Below are positions 4,368-9,258 of a stretch of DNA of 34,426 bases, in pieces. Every line of letters starts with the position of its first letter. The stretch's first letter is position 1. The position numbers and the translations under genes are program-made. The notes beneath the pieces are model-generated. The model worked only from the letters and a program-made list of their open reading frames with translations, ran no database searches and was not told the origin of the DNA. The stretch comes from Sulfurihydrogenibium sp. (GTDB lineage Bacteria > Aquificota > Aquificia > Aquificales > Hydrogenothermaceae), in the NCBI RefSeq assembly GCF_028276765.1, contig NZ_JAPYVU010000018.1, positions 1 through 34,426 on the forward strand. The letters are read 5' to 3'.

Positions 4368-5117
4368 TCATTGAGACCCTCTTAAAAATGAGAATATAGA
4401 AGACAATATCGCTAAAAAAGTTTGAAAAAATACGATAGTGTAACCTGTTGGTAAGTCAAAGTTATAAGATACATAAACTGCCAAAAGATTGATTAAACTA
4501 CCTAAAATCACAGCATAAAAAATTAAATTCTTAGAGAAAAACTGCATAACCGTAAACGCCGGAGCTATCAAGAGAGAAAAGACGACAAATACGCCGGCTA
4601 ATGAAACTGAACTTGTGATTGTAATTGAAAATACAGAAAAAAATAACATTTCTTTTATAAATCCTGCCGTAAATCTGTTAATCACAAATAAAAACAACCC
4701 TAAGACTGTGTATAAAATAGCTGTTTTGTAAACCTCTGTCATATTTACAAACAGGATATCGTATGCAAGCAAATTGTTTAATTCCTCAAGACCGTGAGGT
4801 GATTTTGACATAATAATGAATATTAAAGAAATTCCAAAAGCATAAATCAGTCCAATAAAACCCTCTACAGAAACTTTTTCTTTTTTTGTTGCAAGCGTTA
4901 TTAAAATAGCCGTTATTAGTGCAAAAGATAGTGAGATTAAATATCTATACTGACCTTCAAAAAAGAAAAGAGAGACTGCCGCTCCTGCGGCAGCCATTTG
5001 TCCAATAGATAAATCAGTAAAGATTATCCCTCTTTTTATTATTTCTATTCCAAAGTAAGAATGGATAACCAATAAAACTATAGATAAAGTCAATGCAGGT
5101 ATTAAAATATCACTCAT
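4368..5117 (-). CDS. znuB: zinc/manganese ABC transporter permease (ZnuB/MntB type)
   Basis: This 249-residue polytopic membrane protein belongs to the ABC-3 family of metal permeases, with about seven to eight predicted helices. The family pattern IFTDLSIGQMAAAGAAVS near residue 31 and the SSVSLAGVFVVFSLLIAPA segment in the C-terminal half are typical. It moves a divalent metal, probably zinc or manganese, delivered by the binding protein encoded just upstream. The two genes overlap by 4 bp (ATGA type), so they are co-translated. No cognate ATP-binding subunit is encoded in the window. It ends the operon about 35 bp before the HU terminator, facing it. Confidence 0.88.
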   Translation of the reverse strand: MSDILIPALTLSIVLLVIHSYFGIEIIKRGIIFTDLSIGQMAAAGAAVSLFFFEGQYRYLISLSFALITAILITLATKKEKVSVEGFIGLIYAFGISLIFIIMSKSPHGLEELNNLLAYDILFVNMTEVYKTAILYTVLGLFLFVINRFTAGFIKEMLFFSVFSITITSSVSLAGVFVVFSLLIAPAFTVMQFFSKNLIFYAVILGSLINLLAVYVSYNFDLPTGYTIVFFQTFLAILSSIFSFLRGSQ

Positions 5118-5998
5118 TTATTCATCCTTTCAACGATTGTATCAAATAAAGAGAACATATCCTTTGCCTCTTCTACTGCTCCAGCGTCATGAGGAAGGAC
5201 TACAATTTTTAAACCCATCTTTTCTGATATGTATTTTGCAGGTTTGATAGGATGGTAAACATCTTGTAATATCATCTTCACATTTTCAGATTTTGATTTT
5301 AAGATTAGCTCCTCTAAATGCTTTGCTGTTGGTGGTATTCCGGGTAATGGCTCTATCGTGTCTACAGAGATAATGCCATATCTTTTTAAGAAATAATCAA
5401 ACAGCTTATGATACTGATAAACTTTTACTCCTTTCAAGCTTGCCATTTTTGAATTCCAAACGGCTAATTTTTCATTCCATCTTTTCTTAAAGTCAGACAA
5501 ATTATTTTTGTAATAATCACAGTTTGAACCATCAAGCTTACATAGTTTTTCTGTAATTACTTGTGAGATAATTGGCACATTATATGGGTCTAAGTGAAAG
5601 TGAGGGTTTCCCTCCGGATGTACATCTCCCATTGCTCTTGATACATTCTCCGGTTTTTCTATCAGATTGATGTACTGAGATAAGTCTAAAAATCCATTTG
5701 ACCCGGGATTAATTTTTCTGTTACTTGCTTGGTTTAAAAGTGGTGGAAGCCAGCCAATTTCAAGACCAGCTCCATTGATGATTAATAAATCTGCGTTTCT
5801 AAGCTTTACAGTCAAAGATGGCTTTGGAACGATAAAGTGAGGGTCTAAGTTTCCGGAAGCTAAATAATCTACCTGTGCTTTCTCTTTTACAATCTCTTTT
5901 GTAATACTTGCTATGTATGGATATGTTGCTACTACTTTAATTTCTGCTTTTACAAATCCAAATGTTAATAAAATTAATAAAAACGATAAAACTCTCAT
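5114..5998 (-). CDS. znuA: zinc/manganese ABC transporter substrate-binding protein (ZnuA type)
   Basis: This is a periplasmic metal-binding protein of 294 residues in the ZnuA/TroA cluster. It has a signal peptide (about 1-18) and then KVVATYPYIASITKEIV, the usual first strand. Candidate metal ligands are His54 in LDPHF, His133/His135 in NPHFHLDP, His in YQYHKLF (about 197) and Asp in LPHDAG (about 272). The long His/acid-rich loop of proteobacterial ZnuA is absent. The ribosome binding site is poor (only AGG in CCAGGCTT), and the TnpB element sits immediately upstream, separating this gene from its presumed operon promoter. Zinc versus manganese cannot be settled from sequence; zinc is favoured by context. 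Confidence 0.85.
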   Translation of the reverse strand: MRVLSFLLILLTFGFVKAEIKVVATYPYIASITKEIVKEKAQVDYLASGNLDPHFIVPKPSLTVKLRNADLLIINGAGLEIGWLPPLLNQASNRKINPGSNGFLDLSQYINLIEKPENVSRAMGDVHPEGNPHFHLDPYNVPIISQVITEKLCKLDGSNCDYYKNNLSDFKKRWNEKLAVWNSKMASLKGVKVYQYHKLFDYFLKRYGIISVDTIEPLPGIPPTAKHLEELILKSKSENVKMILQDVYHPIKPAKYISEKMGLKIVVLPHDAGAVEEAKDMFSLFDTIVERMNK

Positions 5999-6029
5999 TT
6001 TTAAGCCTGGTCAACCAAACTGTACAAAA

Positions 6030-6055
6030 CTGTATAAAAGTGTAAAAAAGTGTAT
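6030..6055 (+). repeat. right terminal inverted repeat of the TnpB element
   Basis: This 26-bp sequence matches the inverse of 7780-7805 at 24 of 26 positions. It is built of tandem 10-bp units (TGTATAAAAG, TGTAAAAAAG, TGTATCAGTT), with a further unit TGTACAAAAC just outside at 6021-6030. Its outer flank AAAA also occurs outside the left repeat, a possible but weak target duplication. Confidence 0.75.
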
Positions 6056-7716
6056 CAGTTTGCACAGCTTGGGTCAGGGTATTTATAGTCCGCCACTTCA
6101 GACACTTCCGACCCTGACAGGCGGTATTTTGGAAGTGTCATAGTCCCTGTACCAAGCACAGGAACTAACCTGTTAACCACTGCTATCCAATCCCCTAAAA
6201 CGATTATTTGTTTTAAGGGAGAAAGATCTCTGTATGATCTTTCAAGACAGCAGAAGGCTAAGGCTATGGAAAGAACTTGCCAGCTTTTATGTCCGCTTGT
6301 AGGCAGACCCCTCACCTGTTCCTTCCGTTGGTTTAAAGGTTGTTGGGTAGCTGTCTTGCTCTTTCCACTTTCTAAACGTGAAACGTGAGATGTGAAACGT
6401 GAGACGTGGTTTTGTAGTGTTTTTAGGTTTTTTCTTAATTTTGCTAATTTACTTTTTAGTTTATTTCTCTTGTATTCATTGTTTTCTTCTTTTAACTTTT
6501 GTTTTAATTTTGCGATATTATCTTCAATTTTTGCTATAGTGTATGATAGAAAGTCGGTATCATTTAAAAGTTCTTTATAATTCTTAGGCAATTTCTCTTT
6601 AAATCCAAATCCTCTTCTTGCTATTACGTAAGCTCCTGCTATATCTTTGTCTATGTTGTATTGCGGAGAGTATTTTAATTTTCCAATTACTGATGTGTAT
6701 GCAGGATTGACTTTTATTATTTCTATCCCGTTTCTTTTTGCTAATATTTCTATTTTGTTTAACAGTCTTTTATAGCTCCACTTTTGTAGTCTAATTCTTA
6801 ATTTTGTAAATCCGTCTCCTTTTTTACCCTTTGGTAGTTTTTCTAAATTCTCAATAGCAATAGCTTTATTCTCTTCTTTTGCTATCTCTATTATCTTATA
6901 TGCTATTTGCCATTCTAAGTATTGTCTTTTTTCTGAGTTTGCTTCTAATAATTCGTTTAAATCAATTCTTTCGTATTTCTCTAAATTTCCGTTTTTAGTT
7001 GCAAAAGCTAATGCTAAATGAAATGGGTATGCGTTTACGTCTATGCCTATTATTCCATTGTCTTTCTTGATTTTTATAGATGGTAGTTTTTCTTCTATGG
7101 ATATAAAAGCATATAGATTACCGTTTTTTACTTTTAGTCTGACTGAATATGGGAACCATTCTTTGTATTTATATGCATTTTCAAGCATGAACATAAAATC
7201 TATCCATTTGTCTTTTTCTCTTCTGACATCTCTAATTACTTTTGCGTAGATATATTGTCTGTCTCCTATGTTTATTCTCAAATAAAGCTCATTATCTATC
7301 CACTCAAATCTTAGATTTAGATTTCCTTGTCTAGATTTATCTCCTCTTGAATATAAATTTCCTTGTCTGCTTTCTTTCCATTTTGCTTTTAACTGTTTTC
7401 TTCTTTTTCCTGTTAGGTGGTTTTTCTTTAATTGTTCAAACACTTTCCTTGAGCCAAATATAAGCTTTTTTGGATTTTGACCTCTTTCTTTACATGATGA
7501 AATGGTGGATTGTGCTAAGAGTATTGCATCATCTGAGTACCTTGTGTTTATGTCAAATAGTTTTGATAGTGTCTTTTTTAGATCTTTTCTTTTTTCGCCT
7601 TCCAATAATCTCTGGTATGCATATCTCATAGCAGATGAGAATCTACGCATTAAATCTAATATAGTTTCTCTATCTTGCGTATTTTGGAATTCAAGTAGGC
7701 ATTGGAGTGTTGTCAT
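6055..7716 (-). CDS. tnpB: TnpB-like RNA-guided nuclease lacking a zinc ribbon
   Basis: The 553-residue reading frame contains a TnpB/OrfB-type RuvC domain. Catalytic candidates are Asp226 in GIDVNAY (RuvC-I), Glu289 in AIENLEKL (RuvC-II) and Asp358 in DKDIAGAYVIARR (RuvC-III). Between motifs II and III, where TnpB usually has a four-cysteine zinc ribbon, the sequence NPAYTSVIGKLKYSPQYNID has no cysteine. The true protein probably ends near residue 436: the last 117 residues begin with the heptanucleotide repeat (HVSRFTSHVSR) and then read through the structured RNA. The family cleaves DNA at sites specified by its omega RNA. No tnpA is present. The ribosome binding site is weak. An internal duplication (SRQGNL twice, about residues 117-133) is visible. 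Confidence 0.82.
   Translation of the reverse strand: MTTLQCLLEFQNTQDRETILDLMRRFSSAMRYAYQRLLEGEKRKDLKKTLSKLFDINTRYSDDAILLAQSTISSCKERGQNPKKLIFGSRKVFEQLKKNHLTGKRRKQLKAKWKESRQGNLYSRGDKSRQGNLNLRFEWIDNELYLRINIGDRQYIYAKVIRDVRREKDKWIDFMFMLENAYKYKEWFPYSVRLKVKNGNLYAFISIEEKLPSIKIKKDNGIIGIDVNAYPFHLALAFATKNGNLEKYERIDLNELLEANSEKRQYLEWQIAYKIIEIAKEENKAIAIENLEKLPKGKKGDGFTKLRIRLQKWSYKRLLNKIEILAKRNGIEIIKVNPAYTSVIGKLKYSPQYNIDKDIAGAYVIARRGFGFKEKLPKNYKELLNDTDFLSYTIAKIEDNIAKLKQKLKEENNEYKRNKLKSKLAKLRKNLKTLQNHVSRFTSHVSRLESGKSKTATQQPLNQRKEQVRGLPTSGHKSWQVLSIALAFCCLERSYRDLSPLKQIIVLGDWIAVVNRLVPVLGTGTMTLPKYRLSGSEVSEVADYKYPDPSCAN
6070..6310 (-). ncRNA. candidate omega RNA (guide RNA scaffold) of TnpB
   Basis: A ladder of hairpins lies at the 3' end of tnpB in the same sense: 6291-6296/6303-6308, 6222-6228/6236-6242 (7 bp), 6192-6201/6210-6219 (10 bp), 6146-6150/6158-6162 and 6101-6109/6131-6139 (9 bp). 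Two of these stems contain a U-G pair on the minus strand that would be a C-A mismatch on the plus strand, so pairing is kept only in the tnpB-sense transcript. The loop of the 9-bp hairpin contains 8 nt (6111-6118) perfectly complementary to 6073-6080 downstream, giving a pseudoknot. TnpB omega RNAs overlap the tnpB 3' end and carry such a pseudoknot near the guide. RNA ends are unknown. Confidence 0.68.
6374..6409. repeat. heptanucleotide tandem repeat (CGTGAAA/CGTGAGA)n
   Basis: About five units of 7 bp, CGTGAAA, CGTGAGA, TGTGAAA, CGTGAGA, CGTGG. It lies exactly where the conserved part of TnpB ends, and is translated as HVSRFTSHVSR. Related arrays are at 29219-29249 and 31871-31906. Confidence 0.85.
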
Positions 7717-7779
7717 CTTTAATTACTCTCTTTTCTTACTATTTACAATTTTACACTTTTTGTTTTATATATTATCAAT

Positions 7780-7805
7780 ATACGCTTTTTTACACTTTTT
7801 TACAG
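7780..7805 (-). repeat. left terminal inverted repeat of the TnpB element
   Basis: On the minus strand two perfect 10-bp units TGTAAAAAAG are followed by CGTATATTGA. It pairs with 6030-6055 in inverse orientation (24 of 26 positions). A further partial unit (TGTAAAATTG) lies inside at about 7746-7755. Confidence 0.75.
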
Positions 7806-7825
7806 AAAATAGCAACTGTTGTGCA

Positions 7826-7832
7826 CCTCCTT
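7826..7832 (-). promoter_or_regulatory. orphan ribosome binding site after the porin gene
   Basis: AAGGAGG immediately after the porin stop codon is followed by GTGCAC, exactly as in the site in front of the porin gene itself (AGGAGGTGCAC at about 9262-9272). No suitable gene follows; the TnpB element begins about 20 bp further on. Confidence 0.5.
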
Positions 7833-7833
7833 T

Positions 7834-9258
7834 TTAAAATCCGTGTGCTCCATGGGCACCAATTGCTAAGTTAAACTGCAGAATAACCTCATGAATGGGT
7901 TTTCTTTCCAAATTTTCTGTAAACAAGCTTTTGTCGTAGTTATACTGAAGTCTGATTCTTGAAAACTCGCTTGGCAAAAAGTCTATCATAGCAGAGTATT
8001 TATACATATTGTCCGGCAGGCTCCTGTTTCTACCGTTTACAAATACATCATTTTTATTGATTAAATCATATCTCAAACCGGCTCTCCATCTTTGGGCAAA
8101 TTTATAGATACCTTCGACATAAAATCCTACCTGTTTTTTTTCAAGTTTTGGAGTTTGAAGGTTTCCACTGTTGTCATAACCAAACCTTGTTCCATCAAAC
8201 TTTCTATAGATATATTCAGACTGTAAAAGTAAATATCTGTAAGAGTCTAACGTGTGTCTTGTTGTCAGCTCAAATCCATAAATTTTCGTATCGCCAGATA
8301 GTGCATGAGGGTTGTCATCTTCTAAATGGTTAATTCTTGTTTTTCCTTGTGCACATGATACACCTGTCAAGATTGAAGTATTGCCTATGTCAAAAGATGG
8401 TTTGATGAAAAATGTAAATAGATTTGGCTTTTTGGTGTCGCTGATTTTTATATTATCTCCGCTCCCATCTTTTTTAGTGTTGACAATAAATCCATTTCTG
8501 TTAAAGTTGTTTTCATTATCTCCTTGGAAGACTTCAAAGCCGGTTAAAAGATAAAATGGAGTTGGTGCAAGCCACGATAATTGAATGCCTGTTTCGTTTA
8601 GATTTTCTTCTCCAAAAACAGCTCTGTATATCAAAGGTGCGTCTGCAAAGTTCCAAACGTGATGGTGTTGCTTATTTAGCCTTCCAAACTCGCTATAAAA
8701 TTTACCACCTTTTAGCTTTAAGTTATAGGGCAAATCTCTTGTTTGAAAATATCCTTCTTCAATTTCAAAGCTATCTTTACCAAGATGAAAAACACCAACC
8801 AAATCAAAGTATGGGTCAACTGCTGAAGATATATACATTTCAGAATAATTGAAGTTAAAACCTCTTTCAGCATTATATGGCGCGTGACCATGACTATGAT
8901 CTCCGTGACTATGGAAAAATCCATGATTAAATCCTGGAATTTGAATAGATTTGTAGGTATCATCTGTAAGACTTCTGCTTACATAAGAAAAGTCTGTAAT
9001 CAAAGATATATCAGGTACAAACTTAGCCTGCGAGAATGGATTAGATAGTATTTTATCAATGGTGCTTTCTGTTTGTAAGTTTTGTAATTTTTCCTTTGTC
9101 TGATTTAAAACTTCCTGTTGTTGCTCTAACTGGTTCAATCTTTCTTGAAGTTTATTTATAATCTCCCTTTGTTTTTCGAGCTCTTTTTTTAACTCCTCTA
9201 TGTCTTCTGCGTATGAAAATGTAAATAACGCCAACGTTGCAAGTAAGTATTTTTTCAT
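7834..9258 (-). CDS. outer-membrane porin-like protein with a His-rich loop
   Basis: The 474-residue protein has a signal peptide (MKKYLLATLALFTFSYA), a periplasmic coiled coil (about 19-70, ELEKQREIINKLQERLNQLE), and a long region of alternating beta strands ending in phenylalanine, as in outer-membrane barrels. A loop at about residues 116-127 reads HSHGDHSHGHAPY, and the C-terminus has GAHGAHGF; both suit zinc binding. I do not recognise a named family with certainty. Position between a small His/Cys protein and a ZnuA-type binding protein suggests it lets zinc through the outer membrane or captures it. A strong site (AGGAGG) precedes the ATG at 9258. Confidence 0.8.
   Translation of the reverse strand: MKKYLLATLALFTFSYAEDIEELKKELEKQREIINKLQERLNQLEQQQEVLNQTKEKLQNLQTESTIDKILSNPFSQAKFVPDISLITDFSYVSRSLTDDTYKSIQIPGFNHGFFHSHGDHSHGHAPYNAERGFNFNYSEMYISSAVDPYFDLVGVFHLGKDSFEIEEGYFQTRDLPYNLKLKGGKFYSEFGRLNKQHHHVWNFADAPLIYRAVFGEENLNETGIQLSWLAPTPFYLLTGFEVFQGDNENNFNRNGFIVNTKKDGSGDNIKISDTKKPNLFTFFIKPSFDIGNTSILTGVSCAQGKTRINHLEDDNPHALSGDTKIYGFELTTRHTLDSYRYLLLQSEYIYRKFDGTRFGYDNSGNLQTPKLEKKQVGFYVEGIYKFAQRWRAGLRYDLINKNDVFVNGRNRSLPDNMYKYSAMIDFLPSEFSRIRLQYNYDKSLFTENLERKPIHEVILQFNLAIGAHGAHGF

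What the first reader, a model, noticed from the sequence alone, without database searches (positions are those of the whole stretch)
6020..7810. TnpB element with 26-bp terminal inverted repeats built of 10-bp iterons
Seen: 6030-6055 and 7780-7805 are inverted copies (24/26), each a tandem of TGTAnAAAAG units spaced 10 bp. Known: IS200/IS605 and IS607 elements, the usual TnpB carriers, have no such inverted repeats and use subterminal hairpins or none. Inference: this TnpB is carried by a different, possibly non-autonomous class of element mobilised by an unlinked enzyme, or the iterons bind TnpB or another factor. A 4-bp AAAA may be the target duplication.
Basis: partly seen in the sequence, partly recalled or inferred. 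Interest (0 to 1): 0.68.

Follow-up and report, generated by a model that had tools for sequence, protein, structure and literature searches.

The report
IS607-type TnpB element targeting Shine-Dalgarno sites
The reported repeats are the inner ends of a jumping-DNA element that carries an RNA-guided DNA cutter but has lost its own transposase, and in this bacterium every mapped copy sits inside the ribosome-binding site of a gene, many of them essential, so it shows how a selfish element can live next to essential genes without destroying them.

Summary
The inverted, 10-bp-phased repeats are real (24/26; shuffles reach at most 20), but they are not terminal and do not mark a new transposon class. 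About 20 copies in the genome and empty sites in two close relatives place the element at about 6006-7827, with the repeats 12-25 bp inside both ends. There is no target duplication: both junctions lie at GG. Relatives in Aquificota and Thermus keep the same ends and encode an IS607 serine transposase (TnpA) upstream of this TnpB type. Copies here are tnpA-deleted; some retain a TnpA fragment. The repeats therefore most likely bind IS607 TnpA, as in IS1535. No TnpA is recognisable in this genome, so mobility needs a helper from elsewhere or since lost.
The unexpected result is the insertion site. In 18/18 mapped copies here, and 28/31 elsewhere, the right end lies a few bases before a start codon (infC, infB, rplU, aspS, atpC, znuA). 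Empty sites carry an intact Shine-Dalgarno GGAGG. Each guide would thus read a gene's start. The tnpB frame stays open through the guide RNA and usually stops 5 nt before the element's end, suggesting translational coupling to the interrupted gene. Coupling is inferred; insertion into Shine-Dalgarno sequences is shown.

The parts
7826..7830 (-). Host half-site GGAGG, the former Shine-Dalgarno of znuA; the GG at 7826-7827 is the inferred crossover dinucleotide at the left end
   Evidence: G003 has GGATTTTAAAAAGGAGG followed directly by TTTTAAAATGAGAG at the same locus
6006..7825 (-). Whole element (tnpA-less IS607-type), left end at 7825, right end GG at 6006-6007
   Evidence: Homology between ~24 copies/fragments in the genome stops here; length 1820
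7780..7805 (-). Left-end iterons, units starting 21, 31 and 41 bp inside the end; inferred TnpA-binding motifs
   Evidence: Same 21/31 register in the autonomous copy L133; geometry as in IS1535 (PMC6188088)
6020..6055 (+). Right-end iterons, units starting 13, 23, 33 and 43 bp inside the end; only the first is conserved in the family
6055..7716 (-). tnpB, 553 aa ORF; RuvC-type acidic residues D226, E289, D358 (and D356) invariant in 19 relatives
   Evidence: NCBIfam TIGR01765 75 bits and TIGR01766 59 bits, both over cut-off; alignment A3; dN/dS 0.1-0.2 over codons 1-400 between close copies; fold matches include ISFba1 TnpB and Cas12f
6006..6374 (-). Inferred omega/reRNA, overlapping the 3' end of the tnpB ORF and ending at the element's right end
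   Evidence: 33 of 74 predicted pairs show two-sided compensatory changes over 21 sequences; mini copies keep only the left end plus this block
6062..6072 (-). 5' arm of the terminal RNA hairpin; iterons 2-4 lie in its loop
   Evidence: Consensus fold columns 467-477 with 543-552
6015..6025 (-). 3' arm of the terminal RNA hairpin, overlapping the first right-end iteron
6006..6013 (-). Right-end tip TGACCAGG. In most full-length copies its TGA/TAA is the in-frame stop of tnpB; in this copy an extra TGA at 6055-6057, at the edge of the iteron array, ends the frame 44 nt earlier
5996..5998 (-). Start codon of znuA, 7 nt after the right-end GG; the presumed guide would read from here into znuA
5114..5998 (-). 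znuA, zinc-binding periplasmic protein, the gene whose Shine-Dalgarno is interrupted
   Evidence: PF01297, 150.8 bits

Best explanation
This is a tnpA-deleted derivative of an IS607-family transposon. A serine transposase of the IS607 type, acting in trans, binds the 10-bp-phased iterons just inside each end, pairs the ends and recombines the element between GG dinucleotides. Its target is the motif GGAGG, which in this AT-rich genome is often a Shine-Dalgarno sequence; insertions elsewhere are probably purged. Insertion leaves GGAGG on the left and CCAGG on the right, so neither junction keeps a functional motif next to the guide target. The 3' part of the tnpB transcript folds into a guide RNA whose guide reads the start of the interrupted gene. 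TnpB then cuts alleles that lack the element (GGAG(G) plus gene start), favouring retention and homing. Shown here: ends, target, empty sites, family identity of autonomous relatives, selection on TnpB, RNA covariation. Inferred: TnpA binding to the iterons, trans-mobilisation, the TnpB nuclease role and its motif.
For: Ends from ~24 copies/fragments. Empty orthologous sites for 16 of 18 insertions, GGAGG intact at the junction in 15, no duplication. 18/18 right ends here are followed 4-9 nt later by a start codon, and 28/31 elsewhere within 3-10 nt; a GGAGG taken at random in 416 kb of this genome has that property in 36.5% of cases, any position in 3.6%. TnpA of L133 and L141 hits NF033518 transpos_IS607 at 231 and 220 bits against a cut-off of 110, next to the same TnpB type; the six best-scoring TnpA genomes of the order also pair it with this TnpB type, one partly. 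Remnants of the TnpA N-terminal helix-turn-helix in tnpB-only and mini copies: L136 7e-9, L147 7e-9, C74 3e-6, C30 2e-5. Same GGAGG|TGCAAACAGTTG left end in Thermus, with the TGACCAGG right end in the two copies whose right ends were read. GG crossover and guide-RNA boundary described for IS607 ISXfa1 (PMC10711439); AGGAG is the cleavage motif of IS607 TnpBs in 18/22 strains (PMC11061315).
Against: No IS607 TnpA is found in the window's genome: PF00239 gives nothing and NF033518 only a 22.8-bit HTH match, so current mobility is unexplained; the assembly is a draft in 84 contigs. The right-end iteron number varies widely, so a strict need for several units there is doubtful. The C38 site differs by one AGG from the empty site. 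No binding or cleavage was measured. The NF040570 guided-TnpB model is matched only below its cut-off (51.9 against 100).
Confidence: 0.88

Rival explanations
1. A different class of element: a classical cut-and-paste transposon with terminal inverted repeats and a target duplication, mobilised by an unlinked DDE transposase.
For: A 24/26 inverted repeat exists and no transposase is linked.
Against: Repeats are subterminal and variable, empty sites show no duplication, autonomous relatives encode an IS607 TnpA, and TnpA remnants persist in non-autonomous copies.
Confidence: 0.03
2. The iterons bind TnpB or a host factor, for example to control tnpB or znuA expression, and not a transposase.
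For: In this copy the right-end iterons lie in the loop of the terminal RNA hairpin, so they are also transcribed; the genome has no recognisable TnpA.
Against: The same 21/31 left and 13 right register occurs in the autonomous L133, and IS1535 TnpA binds motifs in nearly the same places (PMC6188088). The more distant TnpB lineage of G001 (54% identity) lacks the left array.
Confidence: 0.1
3. The copies spread without any transposase, by TnpB cutting and repair from an element-bearing allele (homing), and by exchange between strains.
For: TnpB is under strong purifying selection; sites at atpC, aspS and dapD are occupied in two species; gene drive by TnpB is shown for IS200/IS605 (PMC11870625).
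Against: Homing copies into the same site only; most of the insertions here are new sites relative to G003 and G006 and need a site-choosing step.
Confidence: 0.1
4. The element has been domesticated as an RNA-guided regulator of the genes it precedes, as in the TldR repressors.
For: Guides would read gene starts; copies sit upstream of essential genes, always in the same direction.
Against: Acidic RuvC residues are invariant, unlike nuclease-dead TldR; sites are mostly not conserved between species; the orientation follows from the asymmetric GGAGG target.
Confidence: 0.07

Closest known systems
IS607 family (IS607, IS1535, ISC1926, ISXfa1)
   Same: GG crossover, no target duplication, phased subterminal direct repeats plus imperfect inverted repeat, tnpB with a guide RNA at the right end; autonomous relatives pass the NCBIfam IS607 TnpA model.
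   Different: tnpA deleted; specific GGAGG target with nearly all copies in Shine-Dalgarno sequences; right-end motifs expanded inside the guide-RNA hairpin loop; tnpB frame open to the element's tip in most copies.
ISFba1-type IS607 TnpBs with RAGATH-18 RNAs (PMC11061315)
   Same: AGGAG cleavage motif is the same Shine-Dalgarno-like sequence as the GGAGG target here; ISFba1 TnpB (8iaz) is among the fold matches.
   Different: No Rfam match for this RNA; TnpB here is ~430-450 aa plus an RNA-coding tail, without the usual zinc-finger cysteines; word searches of the paper found no mention of Shine-Dalgarno, ribosome or start codons.
IS200/IS605 TnpB elements
   Same: TnpB with overlapping guide RNA.
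   Different: No Y1 transposase in the genome; [quoted passage not shown]
Thermus 'TnpB-related' IS607 elements (L169, L201-L206)
   Same: Same left end and GGAGG target; same right end in the two copies whose right ends were read; annotated tnpB ends 5 nt before the end of the match.
   Different: GC-rich host, where GGAGG is not tied to gene starts: several copies are not at a start codon.

Membership tests
IS607 family | Serine-recombinase TnpA with N-terminal helix-turn-helix | tested here: not met
   Absent from this copy and this genome. Met by relatives with the same ends and TnpB, and remnants of its N-terminus persist in non-autonomous copies. Hence filed as a tnpA-deleted derivative, not as a full IS607.
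IS607 family | Exchange at GG, no target duplication | tested here: met
   Empty sites
IS607 family | Subterminal short direct repeats near ~10-bp pitch | tested here: met
   compare PMC6188088
IS607 family | Binding of TnpA to the repeats | not testable with these tools
   Needs protein
TnpB/OMEGA nucleases | RuvC D-E-D residues | tested here: met
   D226, E289, D358 invariant; 8iaz and Cas12f among fold matches, model mean pLDDT 70.6
TnpB/OMEGA nucleases | Structured guide RNA at the 3' end of tnpB, ending at the element's right end | tested here: met
   33/74 pairs with compensatory changes; transcript not observed
TnpB/OMEGA nucleases | RNA-guided cleavage next to a defined motif | not testable with these tools
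   Predicted motif GGAG(G)
RAGATH-18 RNA (Rfam) | Match to the Rfam model | tested here: not met
   No relevant hit
IS200/IS605 family | Y1 (HUH) transposase | tested here: not met
   PF01797 none in genome
IStron | Group I intron in the element | tested here: not met
   No Rfam match in 5900-7900
DDE transposon or MITE with terminal inverted repeats | Terminal repeats and target duplication | tested here: not met
TldR-type dead TnpB regulator | Loss of catalytic residues | tested here: not met

The most novel reading that the evidence does not exclude
A transposon family adapted to live in the Shine-Dalgarno sites of essential genes. Its transposase and TnpB both recognise GGAG(G). Its tnpB is translated through the guide RNA to a stop codon built into the element's tip, so that ribosomes ending there re-initiate at the host start codon 9-14 nt downstream. 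Insertion is thereby made tolerable, while the guide is programmed to conserved gene starts, which are permanent homing targets.
Probability: 0.35. Interest if true: 0.82.

Novelty: new variant of a known kind. Interest (0 to 1): 0.62.

Why it matters
It identifies a natural target rule for a lineage of TnpB-bearing elements, insertion into Shine-Dalgarno sequences, which explains how they persist next to infC, infB, aspS, rplU, atpC and similar genes and gives each guide a conserved target. It may also explain the AGGAG cleavage motif already measured for IS607 TnpBs. It makes two questions directly testable: how an interrupted ribosome-binding site stays functional, and whether an open frame through a guide RNA is kept for that purpose.

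Tried and rejected
Host-locus origin of the iterons: rejected, they occur at many insertion sites. Classical TIR transposon: rejected. Group I intron/IStron: no Rfam match. RAGATH-18 RNA: no match. The single TnpA in the close relative G003 (L097) as helper: the TnpB frame after it is of a different type and its upstream region shows no such iterons by eye, so not supported, though its ends were not mapped. C-terminal tail of TnpB as a protein domain: unlikely, since substitutions are nearly even over codon positions and the model is below 50 pLDDT over most of 443-553. Preference for the same genes in different lineages (trpS and nuoK twice each): not beyond chance by a rough estimate. One search failed on a pseudogene row and was repeated without it. 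The automatic left-end finder missed several copies; the printed ends were used for those. A comparison copy on a Paraclostridium plasmid was opened and then not used. Literature searches for Shine-Dalgarno-targeting transposons found nothing; subscription journals are mostly not held.

Full report
Observation. The two arms at 6030-6055 and 7780-7805 match at 24/26, and each is a run of TGTAnAAAAG-like units at 10-bp pitch. Shuffles preserving dinucleotides never exceed 20/26. The feature is real.

Ends. The genome holds about 24 copies or fragments of the TnpB element. Aligned on the tnpB strand (window minus strand), homology starts at GGAGG|TGCACAACAGTTGC and stops at GTTTGGTTGACCAGG|. In the window these are 7826-7830 and 6006-6010, giving 1820 bp. 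The inverted repeats therefore lie inside the ends: left units start 21, 31 and 41 bp in, right units 13, 23, 33 and 43 bp in. The right array is variable: copies on contigs C4, C23, C31, C32, C74, C8, C30 and C9 have about one unit, while C10, C5 and C17 have CACGTT repeats. The long 26-bp inverted repeat is thus a local expansion, not a defining feature.

Empty sites. Sequences 3' of 18 insertions were sought in two relatives and found at 88-99% identity. Sixteen sites have an ortholog lacking the element in at least one relative, and 15 of these have GGAGG exactly at the junction. For rplU (C74) the 70 bp before and 45 bp after match perfectly. For znuA (this window) the relative reads GGATTTTAAAAAGGAGG-TTTTAAAATGAGAG. 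No bases are duplicated. Two copies have a left flank that does not match (C10, C5); the flank expected for C10 is found at C40, which suggests recombination between copies or an assembly swap. C38 differs by one AGG.

Where it inserts. In 18/18 copies here the right-end GG is 4-9 nt from the start codon of a downstream gene in the same direction, including infC with its AUU start. Outside this genome 28/31 show the same, within 3-10 nt, with ATG/GTG/TTG and twice ATT taken as start. In 416 kb of this genome 36.5% of GGAGG sites precede an ORF start, against 3.6% of random positions. If copies fell on GGAGG at random, 18/18 would have a chance of about 1e-8; removal of insertions inside genes by selection can account for the excess. 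In GC-rich Thermus the same element family uses the same GGAGG, and several copies are not at gene starts. The target is therefore best read as the DNA motif, not the ribosome.

Family. A scan of 84,980 genomes with the TnpB alignment found 21 loci, mostly Aquificota. L133, L134 and L141 have a serine recombinase just before tnpB, and L140 its last codons at a contig end; L133 and L141 score 231 and 220 bits on the IS607 transposase model (cut-off 110). In the order, 20 of 112 genomes pass that cut-off, and the TnpA loci of the six best-scoring genomes carry this TnpB type nearby, one only in part at a contig end. tnpB-only and mini copies keep part of the TnpA helix-turn-helix; L136 joins the first 28 codons to the last six. 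This shows internal deletion of tnpA. The window's genome and most of the genus have no such gene.

Iterons. The autonomous L133 has the motif at the same left positions 21 and 31 and right position 13. IS1535 TnpA binds 9-bp motifs in helical phase 20-60 bp from the left end and two at 10-28 bp from the right end (PMC6188088). By position and conservation the iterons are most likely TnpA sites; this is inference.

TnpB and its RNA. The TnpB core is under purifying selection (dN/dS 0.1-0.2 between close copies) and keeps D226, E289 and D356/D358 in 19 sequences. The AlphaFold model (mean pLDDT 70.6) has poor confidence in its C-terminal 110 residues; among its best matches are Cas12f and ISFba1 TnpB. 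The 370-nt right-end block folds with 33 of 74 pairs supported by two-sided changes. Minis keep only the left end and this block. The terminal hairpin CCAAGCTGTGC/GTACAGTTTGG holds the extra right-end iterons in its loop.

Open frame. The tnpB frame has no stop through the RNA block, while the other two frames have 3-13 in the last 330 nt in nearly all copies. In most lineages the stop is the TGA/TAA of TGACCAGG/TAACCAGG, 5 nt before the element's end; all six tnpB-only Thermus copies and the tnpA-bearing Thermus copy examined end their annotated tnpB there. Substitutions in this block are spread nearly evenly over codon positions, so the protein is not what is conserved. Random substitution at the observed distance would usually create a stop (0.9% escape at 110 changes, a simple model without RNA constraint). 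Most minis lacking tnpB have stops in this frame. Keeping ribosomes moving to the tip could serve translational coupling or avoid polarity on the downstream gene. This window's copy stops 49 nt before the end because of its iteron array, so coupling would be weaker here, and minis without tnpB also sit before essential genes, so coupling cannot be strictly required. This point is inference.

How it most likely works. TnpA in trans recombines the ends at GG into a GGAGG site. The left junction keeps GGAGG but not the guide target; the right junction keeps the guide target next to CCAGG. TnpB with a guide reading the gene start would cut uninterrupted alleles, where AAAGGAGG precedes that sequence. 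AGGAG is the measured motif of IS607 TnpBs in 18/22 strains (PMC11061315), and the guide RNA scaffold of the IS607 element ISXfa1 extends by the flanking G (PMC10711439), which together fit AGGAGG. Homing by TnpB is documented for IS200/IS605 (PMC11870625).

Novelty. The parts are known: IS607, TnpB, AGGAG motif. What I did not find described is systematic residence in Shine-Dalgarno sequences of housekeeping genes, with a tnpB frame running to the element's tip. I rate it a new variant of a known kind.

Noticed in passing
window 6376-6407; L097 2628-2657: A CACGTTTCACATCTCACG-type short repeat lies inside the tnpB ORF and recurs at some 25 other places in the genome, also inside a different IS607 tnpB of G003 and, in a variant, in the right ends of three copies.
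   Followed up: no
L097 1324-1929 and downstream: A separate IS607 element (TnpA plus a different TnpB) in G003, the only serine recombinase found in the genus.
   Followed up: partly
L002 (C10) and L010/L059 (C40): The left flank of the C40 copy and the right flank of the C10 copy together form one empty site of G006, pointing to recombination between copies or an assembly swap.
   Followed up: partly
L016 (C30) and L017 (C9): In two mini copies the left end lacks GGAGG and its first few bases and is joined to other sequence.
   Followed up: no
L077, L081, L078 (alignment A2 columns 310-360): G001 and G005 copies carry an extra inverted repeat (AAATCGTGTTTCAAA...TTTGAAACACGATTT) inside the guide-RNA block.
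   Followed up: no
L017/L116 (atpC), L018/L099 (aspS), L012/L127 (dapD-like): Three sites are occupied in both this genome and G006 (Sulfurihydrogenibium yellowstonense SS-5 by matching contigs), as full-length or mini copies, which fits shared ancestry or homing.
   Followed up: partly
L016, just after the right end at 1805: infC starts with AUU here and in the relatives, so the insertion lies 8 nt before a non-canonical start codon.
   Followed up: no
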